Source: Ignavibacteria bacterium (GTDB lineage Bacteria > Bacteroidota > Ignavibacteria > Ignavibacteriales > SURF-24). From it: a DNA stretch of 64,000 bases. The position numbers were made by a program, and so were the translations under genes. The DNA lies in contig JAAXKQ010000003.1 in the NCBI GenBank assembly GCA_025612245.1, positions 124,001 through 188,000 of the forward strand, in the 5' to 3' direction. Position 1 is the first letter of the stretch, and each line of letters opens with the position of its first letter. This document shows, one piece after another, positions 34,990-62,850 of the stretch. The notes below the pieces were generated by a model, which searched no databases, was not told the DNA's origin, and saw nothing but the letters and a program-made list of their open reading frames with translations.

Positions 34990-36174
34990 ATGAAAAAAGC
35001 TGCATCTTCAATTCTTTTACTTTTATTAGTCCCGGCACTCATTATGGCACAGTCAAACGTCAATCCTGACATAAGCCTGATCGGGACATTTAACACGTAC
35101 ACGAATTTCAACAAGGACTCTCCGGACTACAATAACCTGAATTTTGCACTCCCCTCCATGGAGCTTCTGGTGGAAGGAAATCTTAACCCTTACTCAAAGG
35201 CCGCGGCGGTATTATCCTACGAAGAATCCTTTCTTATTGAGGAGCTCTACGCACAGGTGCTAAGGGGCCTGCCGCTGGATATTCAGGTTAAAGCCGGGAA
35301 ATATCTTGTCCCTTTCGGTAAAATAAATACCCTGCACCCGCATGCGTGGCCATTCCTGGAAAGACCACTTTTCCAACAGATATACTTTGGGCGGGATGGC
35401 TTTAATGACATAGGTGTAGACTTAAGCTTCATTCTTCCGACCGGAGTGGTCTTTACTTCACTCGAACTAGGCATTTATAAGGGTGATGCAATCGGCAAAT
35501 CGGAAGCCGTTAACCCTAAGGAACAGGAAAGCATCAGGGCACTCAGGGGAAAGAGTCCGGTATTTGAAGGGCGCCTGGGCTCATTTTTTAACCCGGGGCA
35601 CTTTTCAAACATTGAGGCAGGAATAAGCGCCTCGTATGGAATTCATTCCAGGAACCTCTTCAGCATTCCGGGAAATAACATCTCCCCTTTTGAAACTAGG
35701 TCACTTTACTACACCTATCTCGGGGCCGACTTTAAGTATAGATATAAACCGGATGAATATACGGCTCTTACCATTCAGGGCGAAGGGCTCTGGAACCACA
35801 GGGACGTGGCAAGGTTTCATATTACAGGACAGCTCAGGCAGGACGTAAAAGGCACGATAAATACATGGGGCTCCTTTTTATCATTAGACTACCAGTTCCT
35901 CAAAATGTTCTCAAGCGGGGCAAAATACGATTTTACTTACGGACTGCCGGGCGACATTCCCACGGAATTCACACTTTCAAATGACGACATAAATAAAACC
36001 CACGGCATATCCGGATGGTTTGCCTATTACCCGGTAGAGGGAACCCTTGCGCTTCGCCTGGAACTACAGCACCTGATTTTTGATGTGCCTTCCTACATAT
36101 CCAGGAAGAATGATACCAAGCTTACGCTCCAGTTGCTCTTCTCGCTTGGGCCTCATAAGGCGCATCCGTTTTGA
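34990..36174 (+). CDS. Outer-membrane porin-like beta-barrel
   Basis: The 394-residue protein starts with a signal peptide (MKKAASSILLLLLVPALIMAQ), then SLIGTFNTYTNFNKD. It contains VKAGKYLVPFGKINTLHPHAW and GFNDIGVDLSF, a pattern seen in phosphate-selective-porin-like and metal-regulated barrels of Bacteroidota. Strands with alternating residues run to the C-terminus. The role is probably uptake of small molecules; the substrate is unknown. It is divergent from acs, so both could be under a shared regulator of carbon use, but the sequence does not show this. Confidence 0.7.
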   Translation: MKKAASSILLLLLVPALIMAQSNVNPDISLIGTFNTYTNFNKDSPDYNNLNFALPSMELLVEGNLNPYSKAAAVLSYEESFLIEELYAQVLRGLPLDIQVKAGKYLVPFGKINTLHPHAWPFLERPLFQQIYFGRDGFNDIGVDLSFILPTGVVFTSLELGIYKGDAIGKSEAVNPKEQESIRALRGKSPVFEGRLGSFFNPGHFSNIEAGISASYGIHSRNLFSIPGNNISPFETRSLYYTYLGADFKYRYKPDEYTALTIQGEGLWNHRDVARFHITGQLRQDVKGTINTWGSFLSLDYQFLKMFSSGAKYDFTYGLPGDIPTEFTLSNDDINKTHGISGWFAYYPVEGTLALRLELQHLIFDVPSYISRKNDTKLTLQLLFSLGPHKAHPF

Positions 36175-40161: not shown

Positions 40162-40590
40162 ATGATTTACACAAAAACGGGTGAGTATGCTATCCGTGCC
40201 ATTCTTTTCCTGGCCAGACAGCCGAAAGAGAATCTGATTATGTCTTCAGAAATCGCCAAAAGTGAGGAAATTCCGGCTCATTATCTGGCAAAAATTCTGC
40301 AGAGAATGGCAAAATATGGTTACGTCGATTCTTTTAAGGGAAGAGGCGGCGGATTCCAGATTACTGATTTAGCCTTGAAAAGCTCTATTCTCGAGATTGT
40401 TGAAAGGGTTGAGGGACCTGTCATTAACCTTAAATGCGTTACTGGCCTGAAGGAATGTTCCGATGAAAACCCCTGCCCTTTGCACGAAGAATGGGCCCTG
40501 GTAAGAGAAAGAATTTATCAATTAGTATCAAGCAAATCAGTACAGGAGGTAGCAGAAAAATATGCCGAGACATTGAACAAAAACAAATAA
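40162..40590 (+). CDS. Rrf2-family transcriptional regulator with Cys cluster
   Basis: The 142-residue regulator has the winged-helix layout of Rrf2/IscR/NsrR: MIYTKTGEYAIRAILFLARQ, SEEIPAHYLAKILQRMAKYGYV, and SFKGRGGGFQI. Three cysteines, C-x6-C-x5-C in KCVTGLKECSDENPCPLH, match the Fe-S ligand cluster, with one extra residue compared with IscR. I use the ATG at 40162 with GGGGA upstream; an 18-codon extension lacks family similarity. It lies 24 bases before the large cytochrome gene, so it is likely co-transcribed and controls the operon according to Fe-S, NO or redox state. Confidence 0.85.
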   Translation: MIYTKTGEYAIRAILFLARQPKENLIMSSEIAKSEEIPAHYLAKILQRMAKYGYVDSFKGRGGGFQITDLALKSSILEIVERVEGPVINLKCVTGLKECSDENPCPLHEEWALVRERIYQLVSSKSVQEVAEKYAETLNKNK

Positions 40591-40614
40591 TCCTATACTC
40601 AGGAGTGGTTACTT

Positions 40615-43263
40615 ATGAGGCTTTTTCTTGCTCTGTTCCTTGCCCTGACAAGTTCTTTTGCTGTGGCTCAGAATTCCAAGACCCCAACCCCATGTATCGA
40701 CTGCCACAGTGATAAAACTTTAACGACGGAGAAAAACGGAAAGGAAGTTTCTCTGTTTGTAGATGCTGATGATTTTAAGAAGTCTGTTCACGCTGATATT
40801 GATTGTATCGATTGCCATACCGGATTTGATGCCGATAATATTCCTCATAAAGAAGGCAAGGACATTGCAAAAGTTGATTGTGCACAATGCCACGATACTC
40901 AAGTTTTTTCAAAAAGCGTTCATGCCCGCAACAAGGTTGAATGCTTTAGCTGCCACACGAAGCACCAGATAGAAAATGCTTCAACCATTAAAAAATCAGA
41001 AGCAGATCTATGCGTTAAATGCCATAAATCTGCTTCTGTTGCCTCTTATAAAAAGAGCGTACACTACCAAAAATTCTTAGCCAAAGCAAAAGCCCCCATA
41101 TGTACGGACTGCCACGACAAGTCTGCGCACAAGATTCAGTCTGCCAGTTTCAGCAAAAACTCTGAAGAAAAGCTCTGTGCAAGCTGCCATCAGCAGGTAC
41201 AGGGTGACTTTGCAAAAAGTATACACAAAGTGGCTAAAGACTCCAATACTCCAGGCTGCGTAAGCTGCCACGGAGCTCACGAGGTTTATAACAGCAAATA
41301 CTCCATTTCTTCACAGGCATGCCTGAAATGCCACTTGAACCAGTCGAAGTTCGCTGCTTCGGGCAAAACCCAGTTAGTAGGATTTGTAAAGAACTACCAA
41401 TCCAGCATCCACTCCAAGGCCGGGGCCAACGGAAAGGAAGCCGCAACCTGTATCGATTGCCACGGCGATCATATGATCATGGGAACGGATGCCTCCAAGG
41501 CGCTTACTTCCCGCGAAAATATCCCAAATACGTGCGGAAAGTGCCATGCCAACATACTTAAAGATTACAAAAAATCCGCCCACGGGATGGCTTTTGCCAA
41601 GGGGCTTGCAGTTGCACCAAGCTGCGTCGACTGCCATGGCGAGCACACAATCCATTCCATACAGGATAAAGACAACAAGCTCGGGAAAATTAACGAAAAG
41701 GACGTATGCTATAACTGCCACGTCAAGAATCCCGAAGTAGTAAAGCTGACAGGAAGGCCTTCAACCGACGTTCTGGCTTATGAGAAATCCGCCCATTATA
41801 TGGCTCTTAAAAACGGGAACGACAAGGCTCCCACCTGCTCCAACTGCCATACTGGTCACCTGATGCAGGCATCCTCAATGGCAAGTTCAAAAACAAATAA
41901 AATGAACATTGCCAAAAACTGCGGCAGTACGCCGGAATGCCATGCTTCAATTGCCACGGTTTATAACCAGAGCGTACACGGCGTTGCAGTCAGTAAAGGC
42001 GTCAAGGAAGCCCCTACATGCATCGACTGTCACGGTAACCACCAGATTTTCGACAAGGATAACCCTTTAAGCAAGGTTAATCACGGCAAGCAGGTTGTAA
42101 TGCTCTGCAGCTCCTGCCACTCCGACGTTAAGCTCAACAAGAAGTTCGGCATTCCTGCTTCACAGGCTTCAAGCTACATGGAAAGCTACCACGGACTTGC
42201 AGTCAGGGGCGGCTCCAAATACGCAGCCGACTGCGCAAGCTGCCACGGGGCTCACAACATAAAGCCCAGCAGCGATCCTTCTTCGAATATTAATGAGAAA
42301 AACCTCTCCAAGACTTGCGGCAGGTGCCACCCGGGTGCAAACCTTACGGCCGAATTCAAGCAGGTACACCTGAAAGGCACCGAAACCGAATCCCCTGTCC
42401 TCTTCTGGCTCTCCAAGGCATACATTCTTATGATCGTCGTGATCATTGGCGGAATGCTTGCACACAACATACTGGATTTGATCAGAAAGCGCCAGGAAAA
42501 GAAAAAGCACCGCAAGGAAATCGAAGAGCTGAAAAAGCAGGGCAAGGTTTACCTCAGGATGAGCTTAAACGAGCGGATTCAGCACTTCATAATGCTTACA
42601 AGCTTTATTACACTCGTATTCACCGGGTTTGCCCTCAAATACCCCGACAGCTGGTGGGCCACCGTCGTAAGGACAATCCTGGGTGAAAATGCCTTTGAGA
42701 TCAGGAGTCTTACGCACCGAATCTTCGGTATTGCCATGGTTTCTGTATCTTTATACCATACCTATTACCTGGCATTCACAAAAAGAGGCAGGCGGCTGTT
42801 TATGGACTTCCTGCCGAACCTTCAGGATGCCAAGGATCTATTGATAAACATCAAGTATCTTCTCGGAATCAGCAAGGAAAAGCCCCAGTTCGGACGCTTC
42901 TCTTACATGGAAAAAGCCGAATACTGGGCCCTTGTCTGGGGCGTAATTGTCATGAGTGCAACAGGAGCCATGCTCATGTTCAACACTTTCTTCCTGGCAA
43001 TTGCACCGAAGGTGCTTCTTGACATTGCAACACTCGTTCACCTCTACGAAGCATGGCTCGCAACGCTGGCCATTATCGTATGGCATTTCTATTACATCAT
43101 CTTCAACCCCGAGGTCTACCCTCTCAACAAGGCCTTCATAAAGGGTACGCTGAGTGAAGAAGAAATGGAAAGTGAACATCCACGTGAACTTGAAAAAATC
43201 AGGAACGAAGAGCTCGCAGGCGAAAATGAGCCGGAGAATGTTGAGCCTGATAAGCTGGACTGA
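40615..43263 (+). CDS. Multihaem c / cytochrome b fusion, CbcL-like quinol oxidoreductase
   Basis: The 882-residue protein has a signal peptide (MRLFLALFLALTSSFAVAQ). Residues about 25-575 carry 18 CxxCH motifs plus one CGSTPECH (C-x5-CH), 19 candidate haem c sites, with many distal His in SVH/SAH. Then five membrane helices follow (about 601-622, 652-676, 699-722, 768-790, 800-830) containing His residues (IQHF, LTHRIF, LYHTYY, LVHLYE, VWHFYY) typical of a b-type quinone-interacting cytochrome (HydC/FdnI type). The closest known plan is CbcL of Geobacter, an inner-membrane quinol oxidase feeding extracellular electron transfer, though with fewer c haems. I infer the same role. It follows the Rrf2 gene by 24 bases. 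Confidence 0.85.
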   Translation: MRLFLALFLALTSSFAVAQNSKTPTPCIDCHSDKTLTTEKNGKEVSLFVDADDFKKSVHADIDCIDCHTGFDADNIPHKEGKDIAKVDCAQCHDTQVFSKSVHARNKVECFSCHTKHQIENASTIKKSEADLCVKCHKSASVASYKKSVHYQKFLAKAKAPICTDCHDKSAHKIQSASFSKNSEEKLCASCHQQVQGDFAKSIHKVAKDSNTPGCVSCHGAHEVYNSKYSISSQACLKCHLNQSKFAASGKTQLVGFVKNYQSSIHSKAGANGKEAATCIDCHGDHMIMGTDASKALTSRENIPNTCGKCHANILKDYKKSAHGMAFAKGLAVAPSCVDCHGEHTIHSIQDKDNKLGKINEKDVCYNCHVKNPEVVKLTGRPSTDVLAYEKSAHYMALKNGNDKAPTCSNCHTGHLMQASSMASSKTNKMNIAKNCGSTPECHASIATVYNQSVHGVAVSKGVKEAPTCIDCHGNHQIFDKDNPLSKVNHGKQVVMLCSSCHSDVKLNKKFGIPASQASSYMESYHGLAVRGGSKYAADCASCHGAHNIKPSSDPSSNINEKNLSKTCGRCHPGANLTAEFKQVHLKGTETESPVLFWLSKAYILMIVVIIGGMLAHNILDLIRKRQEKKKHRKEIEELKKQGKVYLRMSLNERIQHFIMLTSFITLVFTGFALKYPDSWWATVVRTILGENAFEIRSLTHRIFGIAMVSVSLYHTYYLAFTKRGRRLFMDFLPNLQDAKDLLINIKYLLGISKEKPQFGRFSYMEKAEYWALVWGVIVMSATGAMLMFNTFFLAIAPKVLLDIATLVHLYEAWLATLAIIVWHFYYIIFNPEVYPLNKAFIKGTLSEEEMESEHPRELEKIRNEELAGENEPENVEPDKLD

Positions 43264-43561
43264 TAAAAGTTTCAATGGGTAGCCTTTCCGGGCTACCCTG
43301 CCCATGAATGCTTTAGCCCGGATCTGTTCTTTATTGAATAATGCAGGCGTTTTTTCGCCTGCATTGTTAGTACCCATAGAATTTCCACTATATTTTGTCC
43401 AAAAATTTGATAATAATATTTAAGGATTCATCGTCAGCTTAATGCGTCATTTGCCGTAAACCGAATTTATTGTATCTTTTTATTATTGACTCATCGTTTG
43501 GACATATAGAGGGAAAACTATATAAAGAAAAAAGCTCATCATTTAATTAATTGGAGGTTAT
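43264..43561 (+). other. Gap with two hairpins inside the cytochrome cluster
   Basis: This 298-base gap holds GGGTAGCC pairing GGCTACCC (43277-43298) and AATGCAGGCG pairing CGCCTGCATT around a TTTTTT loop (43340-43365). Neither has a trailing T-run, so they may be processing or attenuation hairpins. The right half is AT-rich and could contain a second promoter for the downstream cytochrome genes. Confidence 0.55.
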
Positions 43562-44128
43562 ATGTTACACAGACTAATAGCTGGTTCAATCCTTCTGGGG
43601 TCGATAGGCTTCTTTTCCCTTACGGCCAACGCACAGGACAAGGATACCGGTGATAAAAAATTCGGATACGTCGGTGCTGAAAGGTGCGGAATGTGCCACA
43701 AGACAGAAAAGCAGGGAAAGCAGCTTTCGATATGGAAAGAATCAAAACACTCTCAGGCATACAAGACTCTTCAGAGTGAAGAAGCAGATAAAATTGCAAA
43801 AGACAAGGGATTTACCTCAAAGGCCGCCGACACGAAAGAATGCCTCGCATGCCACGTCAGCGGATATGATGTTGATGCTTCCTTAAAGGGTGCGAAATTC
43901 AAGATGGAAGACGGCGTTCAGTGCGAGACCTGCCACGGTCCGGGCTCAGAATACCAGAAGGTCATGAAAAACAGAGATGAAGCCATGGCCAAGGGACTGG
44001 TAGTCCATAAGGATAAAGAAAAATTCTGCACGGGTTGCCATAATTCAAAGAGCCCGACATTCAAGGGCTTCGATTACGACAAATACTGGGCTAAGATCAG
44101 CCATATGATTCCTAAAGACACTAAATAA
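43562..44128 (+). CDS. Periplasmic tetrahaem cytochrome c (c554-like)
   Basis: The 188-residue protein has a signal peptide ending TANAQ and four CxxCH motifs: CGMCH near residue 43, CLACHVSGYD, CETCHGPGSEY and CTGCHN. The order and the GPGSEY segment resemble the cytochrome c554-type family. It most likely shuttles electrons in the periplasm between the inner-membrane fusion and the outer-membrane conduit. GGAGG precedes the ATG. The barrel gene follows after 18 bases, so it leads the four-gene downstream block. Confidence 0.85.
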   Translation: MLHRLIAGSILLGSIGFFSLTANAQDKDTGDKKFGYVGAERCGMCHKTEKQGKQLSIWKESKHSQAYKTLQSEEADKIAKDKGFTSKAADTKECLACHVSGYDVDASLKGAKFKMEDGVQCETCHGPGSEYQKVMKNRDEAMAKGLVVHKDKEKFCTGCHNSKSPTFKGFDYDKYWAKISHMIPKDTK

Positions 44129-44146
44129 CTAGAAAATGGGAAGGCA

Positions 44147-45430
44147 ATGAATAAATTTATACTGTTTTGCATTTTGCTTCTCGGTTTGCCTGTCCTGATT
44201 TTTGCACAAAATATAAATGGAAGACTCTCGTCTTCCATTTATACCTTTGAGCGATTCGACACAACCGATGTATCCAAAACTTACGTGCGCGCTTATGAAA
44301 TGCTGAACCTGAATATCAATAAGGGGCAGTTCTCTTTGCGCTCGTATCTGAATTTTGAGACCGACCTGTCACGAAAACAGGATTATGACCCAAGGTTAAG
44401 ATTTTACAATTTATATCTGGAAGGAAGAAACTTATTCGACATTGCTACTATTAAGGTCGGACGCCAGCCGATTTTCAACAGCATCGCCGGAGGCGGATTG
44501 TTCGACGGCGTGGACCTGGATTTAAGGTACAGCGACTTTAAGCTTTCAGGCTATTACGGCGGTAACACCCCGGCATACCAGAAGTTTGAGGTCACAAAAA
44601 ACTGGAAAGACAATTATATACTCGGCGGGAAATTTACGGCAAATTTCCTTAAAAACACTCAGATCGCTTTAAGCTACATCAATAAGAACTTCAAGCCCAT
44701 GGATTATTATGCCACGCGTCTGGATGCAAACCTGAATCCCATTCAGGTTCTCATTGAAAGCAACTCAAACCAGTTCGAGTTTGCCTCGGCTGAAGTCTCC
44801 TACCGTCAGGAAAATTTGTTCACCCTGGACACGAGGTACGATTACGACCTGAACTTCGAGAAGACCTCTAAGTTTGAGGTTGACGGCAGATACGAACAGA
44901 TTGAAAATCTTGGAATCGATTTATACTACAACTACAGGGAACCAAGAGTAAGATATAATTCCATTTTCTCTGTTTTCGATTTCGGGAACACCCAGGAAAT
45001 CGAAGGGGGGCTCGATTACAGGTTCTTCAGTCAGTATACAGTTTTCGGAAAGTTCGCCAATGTTACCTACAAGGATGAGAACTCACAGAGAATCACTCTC
45101 GGCGTAAACAGCAGCTTCGCCAGCCTGAGCTACCGCAAGAACCTGGGCTACGCCGGTGAAATGGATGCCGTTTCCCTCTACGGGGCATATACAATGATGG
45201 AAGGGCTTCTAACCCCTTCTTTGGGCCTGGCTTATACATCGTATAAGCTATCCCGGGATGATCCCAAGAACAACCTGACCTCGGTTCTTGCGGGTTTCAA
45301 CCTGCGCCCCTGGAAAGCCCTGTCCTTTGACCTTCAGGGACAGTACCTGAACAACAGGATCTATAAGGACGATTTCAGGCTCTTCTTCAAAATTAACTAT
45401 TGGTTTAACACTAACTTAAAGCTGATTTGA
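44147..45430 (+). CDS. Outer-membrane beta-barrel, candidate porin of the cytochrome conduit
   Basis: The 427-residue protein has a signal peptide (MNKFILFCILLLGLPVLIFAQ). From NINGRLSSSIYTFERFD to the C-terminus it is made of alternating beta strands (for example IATIKVGRQPIFNSIAGGGLFDGVDL), ending FKINYWFNTNLKLI, consistent with an outer-membrane barrel. It lies between multihaem cytochrome genes (1-base gap to the next), the position occupied by MtrB/PcoB-type porins in porin-cytochrome conduits. It is much shorter than MtrB and shows no similarity that I can name, so its role as the sheath for a cytochrome is inferred from context. Confidence 0.75.
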   Translation: MNKFILFCILLLGLPVLIFAQNINGRLSSSIYTFERFDTTDVSKTYVRAYEMLNLNINKGQFSLRSYLNFETDLSRKQDYDPRLRFYNLYLEGRNLFDIATIKVGRQPIFNSIAGGGLFDGVDLDLRYSDFKLSGYYGGNTPAYQKFEVTKNWKDNYILGGKFTANFLKNTQIALSYINKNFKPMDYYATRLDANLNPIQVLIESNSNQFEFASAEVSYRQENLFTLDTRYDYDLNFEKTSKFEVDGRYEQIENLGIDLYYNYREPRVRYNSIFSVFDFGNTQEIEGGLDYRFFSQYTVFGKFANVTYKDENSQRITLGVNSSFASLSYRKNLGYAGEMDAVSLYGAYTMMEGLLTPSLGLAYTSYKLSRDDPKNNLTSVLAGFNLRPWKALSFDLQGQYLNNRIYKDDFRLFFKINYWFNTNLKLI

Positions 45431-45431
45431 T

Positions 45432-46643
45432 ATGAAACCAAAATACATTTACTTAATTTTGACACTGGCCATTACCGGTTTTCTGGCTTTCAACGCCTTT
45501 ACTTCCGGGCAGGAAAACCCTAAAGGAAACGGCAACGAGAAAATCATTAAATTTTCTCACAAAGTTCATGCAGACGTAACAGACTGCCAGGGATGTCATT
45601 CCAAGGCTGCAACCAGCACGGAACTCGGTAAGGATCTCTACCCCAATCATGAGAACTGCGGAAGCTGCCACGATGTTGAGGATACGAATAACTGCCAGAT
45701 GTGCCACTTCGATGAGAACTTTGAGCCCTTGAAGTACAGGAACTCAGGCCTCATTTTCAACCACAGCTTCCATATCTCGGAGCAGAAGCTCGAATGCCAG
45801 GGCTGCCACAAAGGAATAGAACAGGTCGACTACGGCTTCCAGGCAAAGCCTGAACCCTACCCCCCGATGAGCCTCTGCAATACGTGCCATAATAATTATA
45901 AAGACATAGCAACAAACGAGTGCAGCCTCTGCCACGTCTCGACGGCTATTCTGAGGCCCCTAAGCCACCAGACGGGAAATTTCAGAAAAACCCACAAGTT
46001 TGACGCGCTTCAGGCCGATGCCAACTGCAACATGTGCCACGATAACACATCATGCCAGGAGTGCCACGTCGGGAACAATATGCTGACCGAAAAGAATACG
46101 GAAAACAATTTCTACGCTCCTTATACTCCGACCAATTCTTTTGATTCCAAAGCCCAAAAACAGCAGATTACACGCGTTCACGACCTGAACTATGTCTATA
46201 ACCATGGGACTGATCTTAAAGGCAAAACAATGGAATGCCAGACCTGCCATCAGATCGAAACCTTCTGCGCAGAATGCCACCAGAACGCAGGGCAGCGCGA
46301 TTTTTCGATACCGGGCGTGATGCCTGCCTCTCATAGGCGACCCAACTTCATGATTGCAGCCCCCCACTCCGGAGGCGGCGAACATGCTGTTTATGCAAAA
46401 CGCGACATTGAGAGCTGCGCTTCCTGCCATGACGTTCAGGGCGGAGACCCCGTCTGCATGAGATGCCACATGGATTCCAACGGCATTCAGGGTGATAACG
46501 CCAAGACTCACCCGGCAAACTTTATGCACGACGTGCATGGCGACTGGCACGATTCGCAGGGTTCGGTTTGCTATAATTGCCATACCAGCGCCACACCCAA
46601 CTCCCCGAAAGGATTGGGATTTTGCGGCTACTGTCACAAATAA
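45432..46643 (+). CDS. 14-haem cytochrome c
   Basis: The 403-residue protein starts with a signal peptide (MKPKYIYLILTLAITGFLAFNAF) and contains 14 CxxCH motifs: CQGCH, CGSCH, CQMCH, CQGCH, CNTCH, CSLCH, CNMCH, CQECH, CQTCH, CAECH, CASCH, CMRCH, CYNCH and a terminal CGYCHK. The haem density is one per 29 residues, comparable to MtrA-type decahaem wires. No lipobox is present. It is probably the periplasmic or barrel-embedded cytochrome of the conduit, taking electrons from the tetrahaem protein. It starts one base after the barrel stop codon, so their synthesis is coupled. Confidence 0.9.
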   Translation: MKPKYIYLILTLAITGFLAFNAFTSGQENPKGNGNEKIIKFSHKVHADVTDCQGCHSKAATSTELGKDLYPNHENCGSCHDVEDTNNCQMCHFDENFEPLKYRNSGLIFNHSFHISEQKLECQGCHKGIEQVDYGFQAKPEPYPPMSLCNTCHNNYKDIATNECSLCHVSTAILRPLSHQTGNFRKTHKFDALQADANCNMCHDNTSCQECHVGNNMLTEKNTENNFYAPYTPTNSFDSKAQKQQITRVHDLNYVYNHGTDLKGKTMECQTCHQIETFCAECHQNAGQRDFSIPGVMPASHRRPNFMIAAPHSGGGEHAVYAKRDIESCASCHDVQGGDPVCMRCHMDSNGIQGDNAKTHPANFMHDVHGDWHDSQGSVCYNCHTSATPNSPKGLGFCGYCHK

Positions 46644-46665
46644 TAGAAAAATTGAAGAGTAAAAA

Positions 46666-47556
46666 ATGAAATACTTAATTACATATCTTTCATTCATCTT
46701 AATTGCCGGTCTCATTGCCGCCGGCTGCAGCGAAATCAAGAAGGACCTCCCCGTCCAGCCTTCTTCCTCTTCTGTTGTTCACGGGCCCGGATTCGCACAG
46801 TTCGGCCACCCAAACTTTCACGGCAACTATCTCAAAAAGAACAACTGGGATATTAAGCAGTGCCAGGGATGCCACACCAACTATAATGCCGGCGGCACCG
46901 GCACCAGCTGCAGAAGCTGCCATACTCAGCAGGCCGGGCCCGAAGCCTGCAACACTTGCCATGGCGACTTCTCCAACCCTAACTATATCGCTCCGCCGGA
47001 AGATACAAACGACAGCACCAGGACTGCCTTGCGCGGCGTTGGAGCCCACTCAAGCCACCTCTATACAAACCAGATCGGAAAAGCTGTCGTCTGCTCAGAG
47101 TGCCATACTGTTCCAACTTCGGTTTTTCAGCCGGGACACATAGACGGCAGGCCCGCAGAGGTCAATTTCGGAACCTTTACCGTCAGTAAATCCATTTCCG
47201 CGCCGGTATATAATCCGTCCGAGAATCCCACGTGCGCAAATGTCTACTGCCACGGCAACTTCGCCTTCTCCAGGGATTCTGCCGCCGCTCAGAACAGGTA
47301 TATTTACCTGGAAAACCAGATCACGGGTAACATAACCAATACCCCTACCTGGACGGAACTCATAGTTTCAAGGGCCACTTCTCAGGTCTTAAAATGCGGA
47401 ACGTGCCATGACATGCCTCCGAAAGGACACGTAGGCCACGGAACGTTTACAATTTCCAGCTGCGCCGGATGCCACATTGGAATTGTGGATGAACAGGGAA
47501 ACATACTGGACAAGGAAAGGCACATAAACGGTGCGGCAAACGTGAGGGGGCAATAA
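46666..47556 (+). CDS. Heptahaem outer-membrane lipoprotein cytochrome
   Basis: The 296-residue protein has a lipoprotein signal with lipobox LIAAGC. Six CxxCH motifs (CQGCH, CRSCH, CNTCH, CSECH, CGTCH, CAGCH) and one C-x4-CH (CANVYCH) give seven haem sites. Features such as HGPGFAQFGHPNFHG and VYNPSENPTCANVYCHGNF resemble Geobacter-type cytochromes with C-x4-CH sites. A lipid anchor and gene order suggest it is the outer-surface terminal cytochrome of the conduit, analogous to MtrC/OmcA in position but not size. It ends the operon before a strong terminator. Confidence 0.88.
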   Translation: MKYLITYLSFILIAGLIAAGCSEIKKDLPVQPSSSSVVHGPGFAQFGHPNFHGNYLKKNNWDIKQCQGCHTNYNAGGTGTSCRSCHTQQAGPEACNTCHGDFSNPNYIAPPEDTNDSTRTALRGVGAHSSHLYTNQIGKAVVCSECHTVPTSVFQPGHIDGRPAEVNFGTFTVSKSISAPVYNPSENPTCANVYCHGNFAFSRDSAAAQNRYIYLENQITGNITNTPTWTELIVSRATSQVLKCGTCHDMPPKGHVGHGTFTISSCAGCHIGIVDEQGNILDKERHINGAANVRGQ

Positions 47557-47579
47557 AATTCCAATTCAGGATAGAAGGA

Positions 47580-47612
47580 AAGGCTGCCGGTTTTGGCAGC
47601 CTTTTTTATTTT
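47580..47612 (+). terminator. Terminator of the cytochrome operon
   Basis: AAGGCTGCC pairs with GGCAGCCTT around GGTTTT and runs into TTTTATTTTAT. It is a classic Rho-independent terminator, placed 24 bases after the last cytochrome gene. Confidence 0.85.
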
Positions 47613-47712: not shown

Positions 47713-48162
47713 ATGAGAGCTTTACTCCGCATTCTTCCTTTTCTCTTGCTGGGCATTATTCTCACGGCTGATTCTGTTTTTGCTCAAACGGATAGATATA
47801 AGGTCGTTTATTCCGACGATGAAATGGTAATTAAGGAAATTGACTCAGAAACCTTTCTTGTGATACATACTTTTCCCTGGCCTGCAAATTCGCTGGTACT
47901 GAAGTTTTAGAAAAACCAGTTTCTTCTCATCGATACGTCCTACACCGATGAGGCAACCGAAAGACTTTTCGAAGGTTGCATTTTGAAAGCCATGGGAAAC
48001 TCCTCAAAGGGAAATCTTGGGGATGCGGATATACATGCCTGGAAGGGTTCCGTTGAAAAAAGCCGGGAAAGATATACTAAGGCAAAACTGGTAATACCGG
48101 GTCACGGCTCAACGGGCGGAATTGAAATCTTCAGGCACACGATAGATACATTTTCAAAATAA
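47713..48162 (+). pseudogene. Decayed subclass B1-like metallo-beta-lactamase
   Basis: One continuous frame of 150 codons is broken by an in-frame TAG at 47908. Before it are a signal peptide (MRALLRILPFLLLGIILTADS) and VYSDDEMVIKEI, FPWPANSLVLKF. After it come NQFLLIDTSYTDEATERLFE and then GCILKAMGNSSKGNLGDADIHAW ... KLVIPGHGSTGG. This matches the start and the end of B1 metallo-beta-lactamases, but the roughly 100 middle residues, with the HxHxDH and the other catalytic His, are missing. The Cys in EGC and the His in PGHG survive. Stop codon and internal deletion make it a pseudogene. It overlaps the 3' end of the convergent gene by nine bases. Confidence 0.85.
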
Positions 48163-49383: not shown

Positions 49384-50832
49384 TTGTATAATCCGGTTAT
49401 CTTTATCTGTAACGGGAAAGAAATCCGCACTTCCGCAAGCCCCACGCTGACTTTGCTTGATTTCATCAGGCGGGAGCTCTTTTTAACCGGCACAAAGGAA
49501 GGCTGCCGCGAAGGCGACTGTGGCGCCTGCACGGTTTTAATTGGCGCAGGTTCCGATGATGGCAGCGTTTCATACAGTGCCGTAAACTCCTGCCTCATAC
49601 CCCTTGGAACTCTCCATGGAAAACACCTGCTTACAATTGAAGGCCTCCCCAAAGACGCCCTTTCACCCTTTCAGCAGGCACTCATTAAAGAAGGCGGTAT
49701 ACAGTGCGGCTTCTGCACACCGGGACTTATTATGTCCGTTACGGGATTTCTTTTATCTGAAAAAGACTTAAGCATTGAACACGCAATTGAAGCCATCGCG
49801 GGAAACATATGCCGCTGCACCGGTTATAAGTCAATTAAAAGGGCTCTGGAGAGCTTCCTGTGCGATTCCGGTATAAACCCCGAAGCCGGGGAAAAACGAA
49901 TGGAAAGCCTCATTGAGAATGGATTTATCCCCCCATACTTCAGGAATATCCCGGAGCTGCTCCGTTCCATCCCCCCTTTCGCAGAAGATCCGGAAGATAC
50001 AAAGCTAAAGCCTTATTTTGCGGGCGGAACCGACATCATGGTTCAAAAGCAAGGTGAAGCCACCGATATAAATTTCCATTTCCTGAAATGGTCTGAGGAA
50101 AGAGTTAGAGTTGAAGATGGCTTTATCGTACTGGATGCCGCGCTTAAGGTTTCTTCCATCATGGATTCCGCCGTTCTAAAGACTTGCTTGCCGCAACTTG
50201 AAAGCTGCCTCGGGCTCTTCGGGTCCCGGCAGATAAGAAACCAGGCAACGCTTGGCGGGAACCTCGCAAATGCCTCGCCAATTGCCGACCTGGCAAACAT
50301 TTTCCTTGCACTGGATGGAAGACTGACGCTTCAGAATGGGGATCAAGTGCGCGAAGTTCCGCTAAGGGACTTCTTTCTGGGGTACAAAAGACTCAGCAAA
50401 ACTGAGTCCGAAAGGATAGTAAAATTAAAACTTCCGGTTCCCGAAAGCGGCTTCTTCTTTAATTTCGAAAAGGTTTCAAGAAGAAAGCACCTCGACGTTG
50501 CAAGCGTCAACTCCTCCGTTTACATGAAAGCAATAGATGGAAGGGTTAAATTCATTCACATTGCAGCCGGGGGTGTTGCGCCCTATCCACTCTACCTTAA
50601 GGAAACCTCGTCGTTCCTGGAGGGAAAAAGTCTCACCTCCGGGATAATACTAGAAGCCGCCTTGATTGCCCAGTCTGAATGCAGCCCCATAAGCGACATC
50701 AGGGGCTCGGAAGAGTATAAGCGCCTGCTGTTAAGGCAACTGATATTTGCCCATTTTATGAAGTTTAATCCTGAACTCATTTATAGTCCCGAAATTCTTT
50801 TTCAGGCACAGGCGCCATCTAAAATATTTTAG
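49384..50832 (+). CDS. xdhA: Xanthine dehydrogenase small subunit ([2Fe-2S] plus FAD domains)
   Basis: The 482-residue subunit has two [2Fe-2S] sites, GCREGDCGACTVL with NSC and QCGFCTPGLIM ... NICRCTGY, in residues 1-160. An FAD domain follows from about 200 (KPYFAGGTDIMV, RNQATLGGNLANASPIADL), then a C-terminal CODH-flavoprotein-like domain. It starts at TTG after AGAGG. It transfers electrons from the molybdenum centre to FAD and NAD. It is the first gene of a seven-gene operon and 17 bases before its molybdenum subunit. The organisation is that of R. capsulatus XdhA. Confidence 0.9.
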   Translation: MYNPVIFICNGKEIRTSASPTLTLLDFIRRELFLTGTKEGCREGDCGACTVLIGAGSDDGSVSYSAVNSCLIPLGTLHGKHLLTIEGLPKDALSPFQQALIKEGGIQCGFCTPGLIMSVTGFLLSEKDLSIEHAIEAIAGNICRCTGYKSIKRALESFLCDSGINPEAGEKRMESLIENGFIPPYFRNIPELLRSIPPFAEDPEDTKLKPYFAGGTDIMVQKQGEATDINFHFLKWSEERVRVEDGFIVLDAALKVSSIMDSAVLKTCLPQLESCLGLFGSRQIRNQATLGGNLANASPIADLANIFLALDGRLTLQNGDQVREVPLRDFFLGYKRLSKTESERIVKLKLPVPESGFFFNFEKVSRRKHLDVASVNSSVYMKAIDGRVKFIHIAAGGVAPYPLYLKETSSFLEGKSLTSGIILEAALIAQSECSPISDIRGSEEYKRLLLRQLIFAHFMKFNPELIYSPEILFQAQAPSKIF

Positions 50833-50849
50833 TATATCAGGAACTCTGA

Positions 50850-53120
50850 ATGGAAAACATTGACCTTTTATATCATGCCCGGGGCGAATCAAAGTTTATT
50901 GACGACCTGAGGCTTCCATCTGATGCGCTTTATGCTGCAATATTTTACTCTTCAACCGGGCATGGGAGGATTCTATCTTTGGACCTGCGTGATGCCCTTT
51001 TGATGCCGGGGGTCAAGGCAATTTTGACTTCAAAGGACATCCCCGGAGAAAATCAGATCGGGGGCGTCATTGCCGACGAGACACTGCTGGCAGAGGATGA
51101 AGTCCATTATGCCGGGCAGCCAATTGCCCTTGTTGTTGCAGAAAGCCCGGAATGCGCCAGGAAAGCAGTAAAAAAAATAAAAGTCCTTTTTGATGAGCTG
51201 CCTGTAGTACTGGATCCACGTGAAGCCTTCAGAAAGGGCAGCTTTATTATTCCGCCCAGAATTTTTTCCATGGGGAACACCTCGCTTGCCTGGGATAACT
51301 GCCTGGTAATTGTAGAAGGAAGAGCTGAGACCGGGGCTCAGGAGCACCTTTATCTTGAGACGCAGGGTTCGGTTGCATACCCTACGGATTCAGGCTCACT
51401 AAAAGTTACCTCGTCTACACAGGCGCCTACAGCCGTCCAGAGGGCGGTTTCCAGGGTAACAGGGCTTCCAATGAACAAAATTGAAGTTGAGGCCTCACGC
51501 CTCGGCGGCGGCTTCGGTGGCAAGGAGGATCAGGCAAACTCCTTTGCCGCAATGGCGGCGCTCTCTGCGCTGAAACTAAACCGCCCCGTAAAGCTCGTAC
51601 TCTCCAGACAGGAGGACCTCAGGATAACCGGGAAAAGGCATCCGTATTCCTCCGACTTCAAGCTCGGGCTGGATTCGGAAGGCAGGATACTGGCCTACGA
51701 GGTGACATTTTATCAGAATGCCGGGGCTTCGGCCGACTTGTCGCCTGCAATACTGGACAGGACCCTTTTCCACTGCACCAACAGCTACTTTGTTCCTAAC
51801 GTAAAGGCCACTGCCTACAGCCTAAGGACAAACCTTCCCCCCATGACAGCCTTCCGGGGCTTTGGAGCGCCGCAGGGAATGTTTGCAATTGAATCTGCCA
51901 TCTTCAAGGCGGCAGAAAAAATGGGCGTTGAACCCTCTTATTTGCAGGAGAAGAACCTCTTGAAGGAAGGAGACGCCTTCCCATACGGGCAGAGTGCAGA
52001 AGGCTGCAGGGCAAAGGAAAGCTGGCTGGCTGCACTGGAAACATTTGAGACAGGTGAAATAAAGAACAGAATAGAGAAGTTTAACCGCGAAAATCAGTTC
52101 TTCAAGAAAGGCTTCGCCTTCATGCCCATCTGCTTTGGAATCTCATTTACAAATGCATCCATGAACCAGGCTGGGGCACTTGTCCACATCTATTCCGACG
52201 GAAGCATCGGGATCAGTACTGCTGCAGTGGAAATGGGACAGGGGGTGAATATGAAGCTGCGGCAGATCGCTTCGGCTATATTCCAGGTGAGCCTGGACAA
52301 AATTAAAATTGAGCCTGCAAACACGACGCGTGTAGCCAATACCTCGCCAACGGCTGCAAGCGCGGCTGCCGATCTGAACGGCAAGGCTCTTGAGAAAGCC
52401 TGCAACGAGCTGCTTGAACGGCTACTTAATGCCGCGGCACTAAAGCTTAAGACAGAAGATAAACCTGTAATTATAAATGAAGAAATCTTACTTAAGGAAG
52501 AAAAAACCGGCCTTAAGTGGGAGGACCTCGTTAAAATGGCATTCGATGAAAGAATGGACCTCACCTCTCATGCACACCATATTACTCCCGGAATTTACTT
52601 CGACAAACTTCTTAACCAGGGGCGTCCTTTCAACTATCACGTCTATGGAACGGGAGTAGTTGAAGTGACGCTGGACTGCCTGAGGGGGACCTATACGGTA
52701 GATTCGCTCAAGGCCATCCACGACTCAGGAAAACCGCTTAATCCCCTCATTGACAGGGGGCAGGCCGAAGGAGCCGCCATTCAGGGCCTGGGGTGGCTTA
52801 CAATGGAAGAGATTGCATACGCCTCAAAGGGACCTCTTTTGAGCGATTCCCTCTCGGCTTACAAAGTGCCCGACGTTTACTTTTCTCCCGGGGAGCTTGA
52901 TATTAGATTTCTGAAAGCTTCAGATAACCCTCGCGGCATATTTAATTCCAAGGCCATTGGAGAACCCCCTTTTATGTACGCAATTGGCGTTTTCTTCGCG
53001 CTTTATAATGCAATAAAAGAATTCAGGCCGGAGGTAAGAATGGACTTTACGGCACCTCTAACAAACGAAAGGCTCCTGCTTGCCCTTTACAGCAAAGAGA
53101 AAAATACAGTTACTGCATGA
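50850..53120 (+). CDS. xdhB: Xanthine dehydrogenase molybdopterin subunit
   Basis: The 756-residue subunit contains SRLGGGFGGKEDQA (the Glu as in xanthine-oxidising enzymes), TAFRGFGAPQGMFA (the Arg that binds purines), and GEPPFMYAIG near the end with the catalytic Glu. All three active-site residues fit true xanthine dehydrogenase. It converts hypoxanthine and xanthine to urate, probably in the cytoplasm with the XdhA-like subunit. Moco insertion should rely on XdhC encoded at about 60.5-61.4 kb. No signal peptide is present. Confidence 0.9.
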   Translation: MENIDLLYHARGESKFIDDLRLPSDALYAAIFYSSTGHGRILSLDLRDALLMPGVKAILTSKDIPGENQIGGVIADETLLAEDEVHYAGQPIALVVAESPECARKAVKKIKVLFDELPVVLDPREAFRKGSFIIPPRIFSMGNTSLAWDNCLVIVEGRAETGAQEHLYLETQGSVAYPTDSGSLKVTSSTQAPTAVQRAVSRVTGLPMNKIEVEASRLGGGFGGKEDQANSFAAMAALSALKLNRPVKLVLSRQEDLRITGKRHPYSSDFKLGLDSEGRILAYEVTFYQNAGASADLSPAILDRTLFHCTNSYFVPNVKATAYSLRTNLPPMTAFRGFGAPQGMFAIESAIFKAAEKMGVEPSYLQEKNLLKEGDAFPYGQSAEGCRAKESWLAALETFETGEIKNRIEKFNRENQFFKKGFAFMPICFGISFTNASMNQAGALVHIYSDGSIGISTAAVEMGQGVNMKLRQIASAIFQVSLDKIKIEPANTTRVANTSPTAASAAADLNGKALEKACNELLERLLNAAALKLKTEDKPVIINEEILLKEEKTGLKWEDLVKMAFDERMDLTSHAHHITPGIYFDKLLNQGRPFNYHVYGTGVVEVTLDCLRGTYTVDSLKAIHDSGKPLNPLIDRGQAEGAAIQGLGWLTMEEIAYASKGPLLSDSLSAYKVPDVYFSPGELDIRFLKASDNPRGIFNSKAIGEPPFMYAIGVFFALYNAIKEFRPEVRMDFTAPLTNERLLLALYSKEKNTVTA

Positions 53121-53158
53121 TAAGGAAATAACTAGTGTCAAATAAACCAGAGTGAAAA

Positions 53159-54529
53159 ATGCTTCTATTAAAAAACTGTTCTTACATCGCCGCGCCTGAA
53201 AATGGCGGCATAATTACCAATTCAGACATACTAATTGAAGCTAACAAAATAAAGCAGATCTCAAAAGGCGTATGGGAAGACCCGGATATTCATAAAACGC
53301 TCGACTGTTCAGGCTGCATAGTAATACCCGGCCTCGTTAACACGCATCACCACTTTTTCCAGACGCTTACGCGCAACCTTCCGGACGTACAGAATGCAAA
53401 GCTGTTCGACTGGCTTACCTACCTTTATGAAATATGGAAAAACATCGACCGGGATGCGGTTTACTATTCCACAATGCTCGCCGTTGGAGAGCTCCTAAAG
53501 ACCGGGTGCACGCTTACAACGGACCACCATTACCTTTATCCCGAAAACTTCATGGGTGACCTTATAGGCACACAGTTCGAAGCCGCCGGAAAGCTCGGCA
53601 TACGCTTCTCCCCTTCTCGAGGCTCCATGTCGCTCGGGCGCAAACAGGGCGGGCTTCCGCCCGATTCAGTCATACAAAGTGAAGAGGCAATTCTTGAAGA
53701 CAGCCAGAGGGTAATAGAAGAATACAACGACCCTTCTGAAGACTCCATGAGGAGAATTGTTCTGGCCCCCTGCTCCCCTTTTTCCGTCACCAAGGCCAAC
53801 ATGAGAAAAACCGCCCAGCTTGCCAGGAAATATAACGTAAGGCTGCATACGCACCTGGCGGAAACAAAAGACGAAGAAGCCTTCTGCAATGATGTGTTCG
53901 GGAAAAATCCTCTTGCATTGATGGAAGAGGTGGAATTTCTGGGTGAAGACGTGTTCTTTGCGCACGGGGTTTTCTTTAATGACGAGGAATTACGCGTCCT
54001 TGCCAACACAAAAACCTCCATTGCGCACTGCCCTTCATCCAATATGAGGCTCGGTTCCGGCGTGGCAAGAGTTAAAGACATGCTGAAGCTTGGAATTAAC
54101 GTGGGCCTTGCCGTGGACGGCTCGGCGTCAAACGATACTTCGGACATGCTTGCCGAGCTCAGAAATGCGCTTTTGCTGCAAAGGGTTATAAATGGGGCCG
54201 ACGCCCTGAGGTGCCGGGAAGTATTTAAGATGGCAACTGAAAACGGGGCCCGAATGCTGAACTTCAGTAAAACCGGCAAAATTAAGCCCGGCTACCTGGC
54301 CGACCTTGCGGTCTTCGACCTGAACCGCCTTGAATATACGGGAAGCCTTTCCGACCCCCTTGCAGCACTCATTTTTTCCGGAATAAGCCACCAGACGAAA
54401 TACACAATAGTAAACGGCAAAGTCACGGTTGAAAACGGATACCTCGTAGGTGAAGACGAAGAGTACCTGATAAAAAAAGGAAACGAGGCATCAGAGAGGC
54501 TCCTTAAGGTACTCAGGCAGGCAATTTAA
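53159..54529 (+). CDS. 8-oxoguanine/guanine deaminase-like amidohydrolase
   Basis: The 456-residue metal-dependent amidohydrolase has NTHHHFFQTLTRN (metal ligands), RGSMSLGRKQGGLPPDSVIQSEE, LAPCSPFSVT, LHTHLAET, AHCPSSNMRLGSG and AVDGSASNDTSDML. The residues around RGSMSLGRKQGGLPPD are those of the 8-oxoguanine deaminase group, which converts 8-oxoguanine to urate; relatives include AtzB and SsnA. It fits between two xanthine-dehydrogenase units, supplying urate directly from oxidised guanine. Substrate choice between guanine and 8-oxoguanine is not certain. Confidence 0.82.
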   Translation: MLLLKNCSYIAAPENGGIITNSDILIEANKIKQISKGVWEDPDIHKTLDCSGCIVIPGLVNTHHHFFQTLTRNLPDVQNAKLFDWLTYLYEIWKNIDRDAVYYSTMLAVGELLKTGCTLTTDHHYLYPENFMGDLIGTQFEAAGKLGIRFSPSRGSMSLGRKQGGLPPDSVIQSEEAILEDSQRVIEEYNDPSEDSMRRIVLAPCSPFSVTKANMRKTAQLARKYNVRLHTHLAETKDEEAFCNDVFGKNPLALMEEVEFLGEDVFFAHGVFFNDEELRVLANTKTSIAHCPSSNMRLGSGVARVKDMLKLGINVGLAVDGSASNDTSDMLAELRNALLLQRVINGADALRCREVFKMATENGARMLNFSKTGKIKPGYLADLAVFDLNRLEYTGSLSDPLAALIFSGISHQTKYTIVNGKVTVENGYLVGEDEEYLIKKGNEASERLLKVLRQAI

Positions 54530-54553
54530 TTTTTAACATAAAAGGCAAACAAT

Positions 54554-55378
54554 ATGCTTTCAGAAAACCTCACCTGGGAATTCCCTTCTTCAGCAGAAGA
54601 AGCCGCAGGGCTACTTTTAAGACCCGGCGCACTTTTGCACGCAGGAGGGACCAGAATACTCAAGACCTGCCCAAAGTCTGTAAAGCTGCTCATTGACACA
54701 GGCGGCCTCGGCCTTGATTACATTAACTTTACCGATAATGCTTACTACATCGGTTCGGGGGTGACATTCTCCGAAATAGTTAAATACCCCGCGAAAGGCA
54801 AAAGCCTCCCGCTTCTTCAGTCATCACTTTCCGGGGCGGCCTCAACTCCCCTCAGGAACAGAATTACCATCGGGGGCTCTCTGAAGGATTTTCCCCTTTG
54901 GAGCAGCCTTTATGCCCCTTTAATTGCACTTAAAGCCAGGGTTGAAATTCTAACGGACAAGCCCGCAATCCACACCGTGGAAGACTACGTGTCTTCCGGA
55001 ATAATAAAGACAAAGCATTTAATTAAGCACCTGATAATTGACGAAGAATCCGGTTTAATTTCAGGCGTAAAGAAGTTTTCTATCCTTAAGTTCCAGTACC
55101 CGGCCTTCACCATTGCAATTGCACTCTGCATGAAGGGAAGGATGGTTGAAGATGCCCGCCTGGTAATTACGGGGGTCAGGAACAGGTTTATGAGGTTTAC
55201 AAAAGCCGAAGAAATGCTCAAAGGCAAAACGCTTAATGAGCTCACACTTGAGGAGGTGCACAGGCACATAAGCCCCTCTTTTATGTCCGACTATAAGTTC
55301 AGCGCCTCTTATAAGGAAAAGGCGGCACGCATAATTTTCATGGATCTTTTCAAAGAAATAAAAGGGGGTATGAGATGA
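54554..55378 (+). CDS. FAD-binding subunit of a second molybdenum hydroxylase
   Basis: The 274-residue subunit resembles the FAD_binding_5 family: ALLHAGGTRILK, then YIGSGVTFSEI and ASTPLRNRITIGGSLKDFPLWSSL. The last segment normally reads TIGGN(x)xxxSPxSD; here Asn is replaced by Ser and the Ser-Pro-x-Ser-Asp is changed, so FAD or NAD handling may differ. It overlaps the following [2Fe-2S] gene by four bases (ATGA), indicating translational coupling. A separate FAD chain distinguishes this enzyme from the first xanthine dehydrogenase. Confidence 0.75.
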   Translation: MLSENLTWEFPSSAEEAAGLLLRPGALLHAGGTRILKTCPKSVKLLIDTGGLGLDYINFTDNAYYIGSGVTFSEIVKYPAKGKSLPLLQSSLSGAASTPLRNRITIGGSLKDFPLWSSLYAPLIALKARVEILTDKPAIHTVEDYVSSGIIKTKHLIKHLIIDEESGLISGVKKFSILKFQYPAFTIAIALCMKGRMVEDARLVITGVRNRFMRFTKAEEMLKGKTLNELTLEEVHRHISPSFMSDYKFSASYKEKAARIIFMDLFKEIKGGMR

Positions 55379-55878
55379 AAATTTCCATTAACATAAACTC
55401 ACGCCTAAAAGAACTTGAAGTCAAGCCCAATGAAACGCTTCTTTCAGCATTAAGAAATAACGGCTACACGGAGGTAAAATGCGGGTGCAGTGAAGGTGAA
55501 TGCGGCGCCTGCCTGGTACTGCTGGATGAAAAGCCCGTCAACTCCTGCCAGGTGCTCGCTATGAGCATAAGAAATAAACAAGTTAAAACGGTAAAGGGCA
55601 TTGGAACGCTCTACCTCCCGCACTTAATTCAAAAAGCTTTTGTTGAAGCCGGAGCCGACCAGTGCGGCTTCTGTTCCCCGGGCATGATCGTTGCCTCATA
55701 CAGCATTCTTAAGGAAACCGGAAACAGGCCCTCGAAAGAAGACATAAGGCGAGGCCTGGATGGGAATCTCTGCCGCTGCACGGGCTACGTTAAGATAATT
55801 GAAGCCGTCGGAATGGCGGCAGAAAAGTCCCTTCAGGAAGAAACTCAAAAGCCGGAGGCGGTATGTACAAATATGTAA
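55375..55878 (+). CDS. [2Fe-2S] subunit of the second molybdenum hydroxylase
   Basis: The 167-residue subunit contains KCGCSEGECGACLVLLDEKPVNSC and QCGFCSPGMIVAS ... GNLCRCTGYVKI, the paired [2Fe-2S] sites of molybdenum hydroxylases. It carries electrons from molybdenum to the FAD subunit. It overlaps the genes on both sides (4 bases with the FAD gene, 16 with the molybdenum gene), so the three chains form one complex. Length matches the family's usual 150-170 residues. Confidence 0.9.
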   Translation: MKISININSRLKELEVKPNETLLSALRNNGYTEVKCGCSEGECGACLVLLDEKPVNSCQVLAMSIRNKQVKTVKGIGTLYLPHLIQKAFVEAGADQCGFCSPGMIVASYSILKETGNRPSKEDIRRGLDGNLCRCTGYVKIIEAVGMAAEKSLQEETQKPEAVCTNM

Positions 55879-58184: not shown

Positions 58185-58232
58185 AGGATGATAATTTTCA
58201 GATGGATTTAACCTTACAAAATTGAAAGCATT

Positions 58233-59651: not shown

Positions 59652-59656
59652 AAAAA

Positions 59657-59686
59657 AAATCCCGGCAGATGCGTGCCGGGATTTTT
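59657..59686. terminator. Bidirectional terminator at the purine-operon end
   Basis: AAATCCCGGCA pairs with TGCCGGGATTT around a short loop, with A and T runs on both sides. It ends the plus-strand operon and can also terminate the convergent NTF2-like gene. Confidence 0.85.
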
Positions 59687-59711
59687 ATTGAATTCCGCTA
59701 AAAAAAGAAAC

Positions 59712-60146: not shown

Positions 60147-60482
60147 AAATACTCCATAAAATTAATTTGTTTTGACTTTTACGAGAGAGGATCTGATAAT
60201 TCCTGATTTTTGCGGCAGAAACGGCTTAAGGAGACAAATAAAATCCATTAAAAACCAACAGAAGAACTAAAACAAAGAAGAACCGCCCCTAAGTCAATCC
60301 AAGTAAACTTAATCGGAAACAATTAAATATTTACTTTCCGGCACAAAATTCGGGATACCAGATTACCTCAATTTCCCTTATTATCAGTAATTAAGACGCA
60401 TAGTAAATAAATTTTGTTCCGTTAAATTATACAAATTTCCTGATTTTTTATAATTAATTATAAAATTTCTTATTGAGCCCGA
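60147..60482. other. Intergenic region, AT-rich
   Basis: About 336 bases between the starts of the NTF2-like gene and the 3' end of xdhC. It probably holds the promoter of the NTF2-like gene and the xdhC 3' flank. No gene, terminator hairpin or structured RNA is clear. Confidence 0.4.
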
Positions 60483-62821: not shown

Positions 62822-62850
62822 ATTGCAGTCTCCCGGTTTTTTAGGAATAC

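What the first reader, a model, noticed from the sequence alone, without database searches (positions are those of the whole stretch)
40162..47556. A complete-looking inner-membrane-to-surface electron conduit with about 44 haem c motifs
Seen: in one direction, an Fe-S-type Rrf2 regulator, a 19-haem-motif/cytochrome b membrane fusion, a 4-haem periplasmic cytochrome, a beta-barrel, a 14-haem cytochrome and a 7-haem lipoprotein, then a terminator. Known: MtrCAB, Pcc and CbcL systems combine a quinol-linked inner-membrane cytochrome, a periplasmic carrier, a porin-embedded cytochrome and a surface lipoprotein. Inferred: this is a functionally equivalent, differently built conduit for extracellular or metal/mineral electron transfer. 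The small barrel and the 14-haem protein differ from the known sets.
Basis: partly seen in the sequence, partly recalled or inferred. Interest (0 to 1): 0.88.

Follow-up and report, generated by a model that had tools for sequence, protein, structure and literature searches.

The report
Porin-cytochrome electron conduit of Ignavibacteria
These six genes encode a switch protein and the parts of a haem 'wire' that most likely carries respiratory electrons from the inner membrane to the cell surface; the core of the wire was already described in a relative in 2014, but it proves to be widespread across this bacterial class and is kept or lost together with the inner-membrane enzymes that would feed it.

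Summary
Six co-directional genes (40162-47556) encode an Fe-S-type Rrf2 regulator, an 882-aa multihaem-cytochrome-b fusion, a 4-haem c554-like cytochrome, a 427-aa beta-barrel, a 14-haem cytochrome and a 7-motif lipoprotein: 42 CX2CH + 1 CX4CH + 1 CX5CH = 44. It is a porin-cytochrome (Pcc) conduit. The core order c554-barrel-14 haem-lipoprotein, with a 400-aa 14-haem protein, matches Ignavibacterium album IALB_1840-1837 (Shi et al. 2014), so the 'small barrel and 14-haem protein' are not new. Added here: the core order is intact in 60 of 62 Ignavibacteria loci; the barrel occurs in 233 of 391 class genomes; the 14-haem protein is nearly invariant while the surface lipoprotein ranges from about 5 to 28 haems; the fused quinol-type cytochrome b co-occurs with the barrel (219/14/30/128), often when unlinked, and an ImcH-like protein follows the same pattern in 59 relatives. 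Losses spare haem-copper oxidases. The barrel model has about 22-24 strands, is not MtrB/PioB, and its most conserved segment is its least confident, as expected of a partner contact. Acceptor and direction are untested; I. album failed on Fe(III)/Mn(IV) oxides. Verdict: real; a new member of a known kind.

The parts
40162..40590 (+). Rrf2-family regulator, C-x6-C-x5-C-PLH Fe-S-type ligand pattern
   Evidence: Pfam Rrf2 2.6e-29; three Cys and the His invariant in the window and three relatives
40615..43263 (+). 882-aa fusion: signal peptide, 18 CX2CH + 1 CX5CH, C-terminal b561/FdnI-like membrane domain; CbcL/MtrH/MtoC-like quinol oxidase (predicted)
   Evidence: Ni_hydr_CYTB 8.5e-15 at 649-834, formate-DH gamma 3e-17; H617, H657, H701, H715, H809, H824 invariant in 32 homologues
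43264..43561 (+). 298-bp intergenic region with hairpins; likely boundary of two transcription units
   Evidence: sequence; hairpin stem partly kept in the congener L124
43562..44128 (+). 4-haem c554-type periplasmic cytochrome (predicted carrier)
   Evidence: Cytochrome_C554 7e-19; 4 CX2CH in nearly all homologues
44147..45430 (+). outer-membrane beta-barrel, predicted sheath of the conduit
   Evidence: no Pfam/NCBIfam family; AF2 model pLDDT 86.9, about 22-24 strands; Foldseek best hits 24-strand FimD/PapC ushers
45432..46643 (+). 403-aa 14-haem cytochrome, predicted wire inside or under the barrel
   Evidence: 14 CX2CH in 71 of 79 homologues, most exceptions truncated or split; profile matches c7-type dodecahaem 3ov0 at 5.2e-22
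46666..47556 (+). lipoprotein cytochrome, 6 CX2CH + 1 CX4CH, predicted surface terminal
   Evidence: lipobox ...IAAGC-SE; C[SA][DE] at the N-terminus in 59 of 71 homologues; haem number variable
47576..47607 (+). intrinsic-terminator-like hairpin

Best explanation
A porin-cytochrome conduit. Menaquinol is oxidised at the membrane domain (probably two b haems) of the 882-aa fusion (CbcL/MtrH/MtoC-like) and electrons enter its 18-19 c haems in the periplasm; the c554-like protein ferries them; the 14-haem cytochrome, sheathed by the 22-24-strand barrel, carries them across the outer membrane; the 7-haem lipoprotein on the surface hands them to an extracellular acceptor (mineral, humic quinone, electrode or partner cell). 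A second, ImcH-like quinol oxidase elsewhere in the genome probably feeds the same conduit. An Fe-S Rrf2 protein regulates at least the fusion gene. Shown: gene content, motifs, conservation, co-occurrence. Inferred: localisation, complex formation, direction, acceptor, regulation.
For: Domains and motifs. Core order intact in 60 of 62 loci with enough flank. Same order and sizes as the Pcc cluster IALB_1840-1837 (PMC4245776). Barrel in 55/59 relatives and 233/391 class genomes; none of the listed matches in a 395-genome phylum sample lies outside the class. Fused cytochrome b co-occurs with the barrel: 219 both, 14 barrel only, 30 b only, 128 neither; within the order 75/4/2/10, including genomes where the two are unlinked (e.g. 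G006). ImcH-like protein in 55/59, missing in G008, G012, G056, which also lack barrel and fusion; own copy G000:C17:63187-64665 with 6 CX2CH + CX3CH. The four relatives without barrel keep COX1. Large barrel model without MtrB similarity; its most conserved block, 271-280, is the least confident (pLDDT 45), and inward residues are more conserved. Haem count nearly fixed in the wire, variable in the lipoprotein.
Against: No experiment. I. album with the orthologous cluster did not grow on Fe(III) or Mn(IV) oxides (PMC4245776). The complex could not be modelled: the 14-haem model is poor (pLDDT 59). Surface orientation of the lipoprotein is inferred. 14 genomes have the barrel without a detected fused cytochrome b and 16 the reverse after weak hits are set aside, some probably assembly gaps. 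Fisher values ignore phylogeny.
Confidence: 0.8

Rival explanations
1. Same conduit, run mainly inwards: electrons from Fe(II), reduced minerals or partner cells enter through the lipoprotein and reduce quinone at the cytochrome b domain.
For: CbcL/MtrH/MtoC homologues occur in Fe(II) oxidisers and Fe(III) reducers and no sequence feature tells direction (PMC6295460). Haem-copper oxidases are present in nearly all relatives, so inward electrons could have an outlet.
Against: Co-occurrence with an ImcH-like protein, a family so far known only from metal reducers (PMC6295460).
Confidence: 0.12
2. [quoted passage not shown]
For: c554-type cytochromes serve periplasmic nitrogen respiration elsewhere (general knowledge); I. 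album does not reduce Fe/Mn oxides (PMC4245776).
Against: Barrel, 14-haem protein and lipoprotein cytochrome stay together in 60/62 loci; haem number fixed in the wire but variable in the lipoprotein; no catalytic enzyme in the conserved core.
Confidence: 0.06
3. The upstream Rrf2-fusion pair belongs to a different respiratory pathway and is next to the conduit by chance.
For: 298-bp gap with hairpins before c554; in family f3 the fusion gene lies far away beside the ImcH-like gene.
Against: Adjacency in families f1 and f2, nearness in several deep-branching families and co-occurrence across 391 genomes.
Confidence: 0.1

Closest known systems
Pcc cluster of Ignavibacterium album JCM 16511, IALB_1837-1840 (Shi et al. 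2014, PMC4245776)
   Same: order periplasmic c-Cyt, porin, 14-haem about 400-aa c-Cyt, outer-membrane c-Cyt with an atypical motif
   Different: here rrf2 and the 18+1-haem cytochrome b fusion are directly upstream; in family f3 loci read here the fusion lies elsewhere, next to an ImcH-like gene
OmbB-OmaB-OmcB (Geobacter sulfurreducens Pcc)
   Same: small porin + periplasmic multihaem + surface lipoprotein cytochrome
   Different: 14 instead of 8 haems in the periplasmic partner, 7 instead of 12 in the surface one; sequence relationship only distant according to PMC4245776, not tested here
MtrCAB (Shewanella)
   Same: works alike: barrel, haem wire, surface cytochrome
   Different: no MtrB/PioB match, no MtrA chain among the profile's PDB hits, 427-aa barrel against about 700
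CbcL/MtrH/MtoC quinol oxidases
   Same: N-terminal multihaem part fused to FdnI/HydC-like cytochrome b with conserved His
   Different: 18+1 haems (family range 3-23, PMC6295460)
GSU1996 (3ov0), c7-type dodecahaem nanowire cytochrome
   Same: c7-type repeats match the 14-haem profile, 5.2e-22
   Different: 2 fewer haems and no barrel partner known to me

Membership tests
Pcc porin-cytochrome cluster (sensu Shi et al. 2014) | porin-like gene beside a periplasmic multihaem c-Cyt gene | tested here: met
   1-bp spacing in the window; 60/62 loci keep the order
Pcc porin-cytochrome cluster (sensu Shi et al. 2014) | outer-membrane (lipoprotein) c-Cyt in most cases | tested here: met
   lipobox and 6+1 haem motifs
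Pcc porin-cytochrome cluster (sensu Shi et al. 2014) | porin with 18-22 predicted trans-membrane strands | tested here: inconclusive
   24 strand segments in the AF2 model, two of them short: about 22-24
Pcc porin-cytochrome cluster (sensu Shi et al. 2014) | sequence similarity to OmbB/OmaB | not tested
   no Geobacter sequence obtained; published for I. album as distant (PMC4245776)
Pcc porin-cytochrome cluster (sensu Shi et al. [quoted passage not shown]
   needs biochemistry
MtrCAB | MtrB/PioB-family barrel (PF11854) | tested here: not met
   no hit for the barrel; no hit anywhere in the own genome
MtrCAB | 10-haem MtrA | tested here: not met
   14 haems; profile hits c7-type proteins and weakly MtrC, no MtrA chain
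CbcL/MtrH/MtoC | multihaem N-terminus fused to FdnI/HydC-like cytochrome b with conserved His | tested here: met
CbcL/MtrH/MtoC | usually six transmembrane segments | tested here: inconclusive
   hydropathy gives about five C-terminal segments plus the signal peptide
ImcH (own-genome partner) | NapC/NirT-like part and an atypical CX3CH motif | tested here: met
   own copy has 6 CX2CH + CGTICH; the homologue in L116 hits Cytochrom_NNT
Fe-S Rrf2 regulator (IscR/NsrR type) | Rrf2 fold with three Cys and a further ligand | tested here: met
   C-x6-C-x5-C-x2-H invariant in the window and three relatives; cluster binding itself not testable

The most novel reading that the evidence does not exclude
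The Ignavibacteria conduit is a structurally separate solution: a minimal, short-loop barrel whose invariant RYNSIFSVF segment clamps a c7-type 14-haem wire unrelated to MtrA, ancestral to much of the class and fed by both a CbcL-like and an ImcH-like quinol oxidase.
Probability: 0.25. Interest if true: 0.6.

Novelty: new member of a known kind. Interest (0 to 1): 0.42.

Why it matters
Ignavibacteria are common in aquifers, sediments, anammox reactors and on anodes, yet I found no genetic test of their electron exchange with extracellular partners. A conduit in over half of the sampled class genomes, tied by co-occurrence to two kinds of quinol oxidase, makes extracellular electron transfer a likely ancestral trait there and gives a defined gene set to test in cultured relatives such as Melioribacter, Stygiobacter or Ignavibacterium.

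Tried and rejected
PHROGs and PDB sequence searches with the barrel gave nothing. The 14-haem AF2 model was too poor for a fold search. A shared Rrf2 operator upstream of rrf2 and c554 was looked for by alignment; none convincing. MtrB/MtrA membership rejected. The idea that conduit loss merely reflects loss of respiration was rejected: the relatives that lack it keep COX1. No OmbB/OmaB sequence could be obtained, so the link to the Geobacter family rests on papers.

Full report
CHECK. The six ORFs exist at the stated coordinates, in one direction. Haem motifs: fusion 18 CX2CH + 1 CX5CH, c554-like 4, 14-haem protein 14, lipoprotein 6 CX2CH + 1 CX4CH; 44 in all. Of 89 cysteines in these four proteins only the lipobox cysteine is outside a motif. 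Spacings are 24 bp (rrf2-fusion), 298 bp (fusion-c554), 18, 1 and 22 bp; a terminator-like hairpin follows at 47576-47607. The 298-bp gap holds two hairpins by eye, one partly kept in the congener, so two transcription units are likely.

IDENTITY OF THE PARTS. Rrf2 by Pfam and NCBIfam, with C-x6-C-x5-C-PLH invariant in the window and three relatives. The fusion carries c7/paired-CXXCH domains and a b561/formate-dehydrogenase-gamma membrane domain; six membrane-region histidines are invariant in 32 homologues, and its atypical motif is CX4CH or CX5CH in five relatives. This is the architecture of CbcL/MtrH/MtoC, whose members have 3-23 haem motifs (PMC6295460). The small cytochrome is of the c554 family. 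The barrel matches no Pfam or NCBIfam family. The 14-haem protein consists of c7-type repeats; its profile finds GSU1996 (3ov0) at 5.2e-22, MtrC weakly, no MtrA chain. The lipoprotein has a lipobox and a CxxxxCH/CxxCH domain.

CONSERVATION. The barrel is in 55 of 59 relatives and 233 of 391 genomes of the class, nearly always once; none of the listed matches in a 395-genome sample of the phylum falls outside the class. Named loci are Ignavibacteria, Melioribacteraceae, Stygiobacter and so on. With enough flank, 60 of 62 loci keep c554-barrel-14 haem-lipoprotein; the two exceptions are a split 14-haem ORF and a locus without detected c554. The 14-haem count is 14 in 71 of 79, most exceptions being truncated or split; the lipoprotein runs from about 5 to 28 CX2CH. 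A fixed wire and a variable terminal is what one expects of a conduit with a surface end. Deep-branching families have 11-14 haems in the wire.

COUPLING TO THE INNER MEMBRANE. Directly upstream in families f1 and f2 lies a fused multihaem-cytochrome b (18+1 or 16 haems); in f3 a 13-haem version lies elsewhere, beside an ImcH-like gene (L116), and in several deep-branching families both kinds lie within about 10 kb of the conduit. Over 391 genomes barrel and cytochrome b domain co-occur 219/14/30/128; within the order 75/4/2/10. The ImcH-like protein is present in 55 of 59 relatives and missing in three of the four that lack the barrel; the own genome has one at G000:C17:63187-64665 with 6 CX2CH and CGTICH. 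The four relatives without barrel keep haem-copper oxidase, so the loss is not a loss of respiration in general. The Fisher values do not correct for phylogeny, but absences are spread over several genera in two families.

STRUCTURE. The AF2 model of the barrel (83 sequences, pLDDT 86.9) has 24 strand segments, two of them short. For 22-24 strands the textbook geometry gives a backbone diameter of about 40-43 A, against about 47 A for 26 strands. Foldseek's best hits are the 24-strand FimD/PapC ushers at TM about 0.5; MtrB is not in the top 50. The most conserved block, 271-280 (NSIFSVFDFG), is the least confident (pLDDT 45), and inward-facing residues are more conserved than outward ones (facing assigned by hydropathy, not from coordinates); both fit a partner protein in the lumen, but neither proves it. 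The 14-haem model was too poor to use.

MECHANISM. Shown: anatomy, motifs, conservation, co-occurrence. Inferred: menaquinol oxidised by the fusion (and by the ImcH-like protein), c554-like shuttle, 14-haem wire in the barrel, surface lipoprotein, extracellular acceptor. Direction and acceptor are open: CbcL-type proteins work both ways (PMC6295460), and I. album failed to grow on Fe(III) or Mn(IV) oxides (PMC4245776), so electrodes, humics, partner cells or other acceptors must be considered.

KNOWN OR NEW. Shi et al. 2014 listed this cluster in I. album as IALB_1837-1840: porin IALB_1839, 400-aa 14-haem IALB_1838, periplasmic IALB_1840, outer-membrane IALB_1837 with an atypical motif. The orthology rests on gene order, sizes and haem counts, since the I. 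album sequences themselves were not compared. A bioanode study reported OmbB-like clusters in Ignavibacteria (PMC7399161). The small barrel and 14-haem protein are therefore not new. What I did not find in the papers read is the Rrf2-fusion linkage, the class-wide distribution and the co-occurrence with CbcL-like and ImcH-like proteins; the literature search was limited to open-access text.

Noticed in passing
window 47751-48159: Remnant of a metallo-beta-lactamase-superfamily gene right after the cluster: an in-frame stop and loss of the middle part compared with the intact 272-aa gene in the congener (L124:14927-15742).
   Followed up: yes
L050:12489 and other LipoC homologues (L049, L055, L039): The surface lipoprotein grows to 12-28 haem motifs in some lineages while the wire stays at 14.
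   Followed up: partly
L044, L040, L062, L072 upstream of the conduit: A second pair, a 19-23-haem cytochrome followed by a separate 281-311-aa cytochrome b, precedes the fused cytochrome in many Melioribacteraceae: a possible additional quinol complex.
   Followed up: partly
L112:9713-12728; similar sets in L114 and L115: In deep-branching families a Rieske protein, a cytochrome b/b6 and an 11-haem cytochrome sit in the same neighbourhood as the conduit: a bc-type complex with a multihaem partner.
   Followed up: partly
G034 (L119:8291-10695): The fused cytochrome b gene is interrupted, split into a 16-haem ORF and a separate C-terminal ORF, in an otherwise complete cluster.
   Followed up: no
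window 34990-36174: Another probable outer-membrane protein, 394 aa, without any Pfam family.
   Followed up: no
window 49384-63522: Molybdenum hydroxylase (xanthine dehydrogenase-like), amidohydrolase and related genes: probable purine catabolism cluster downstream (by eye).
   Followed up: no
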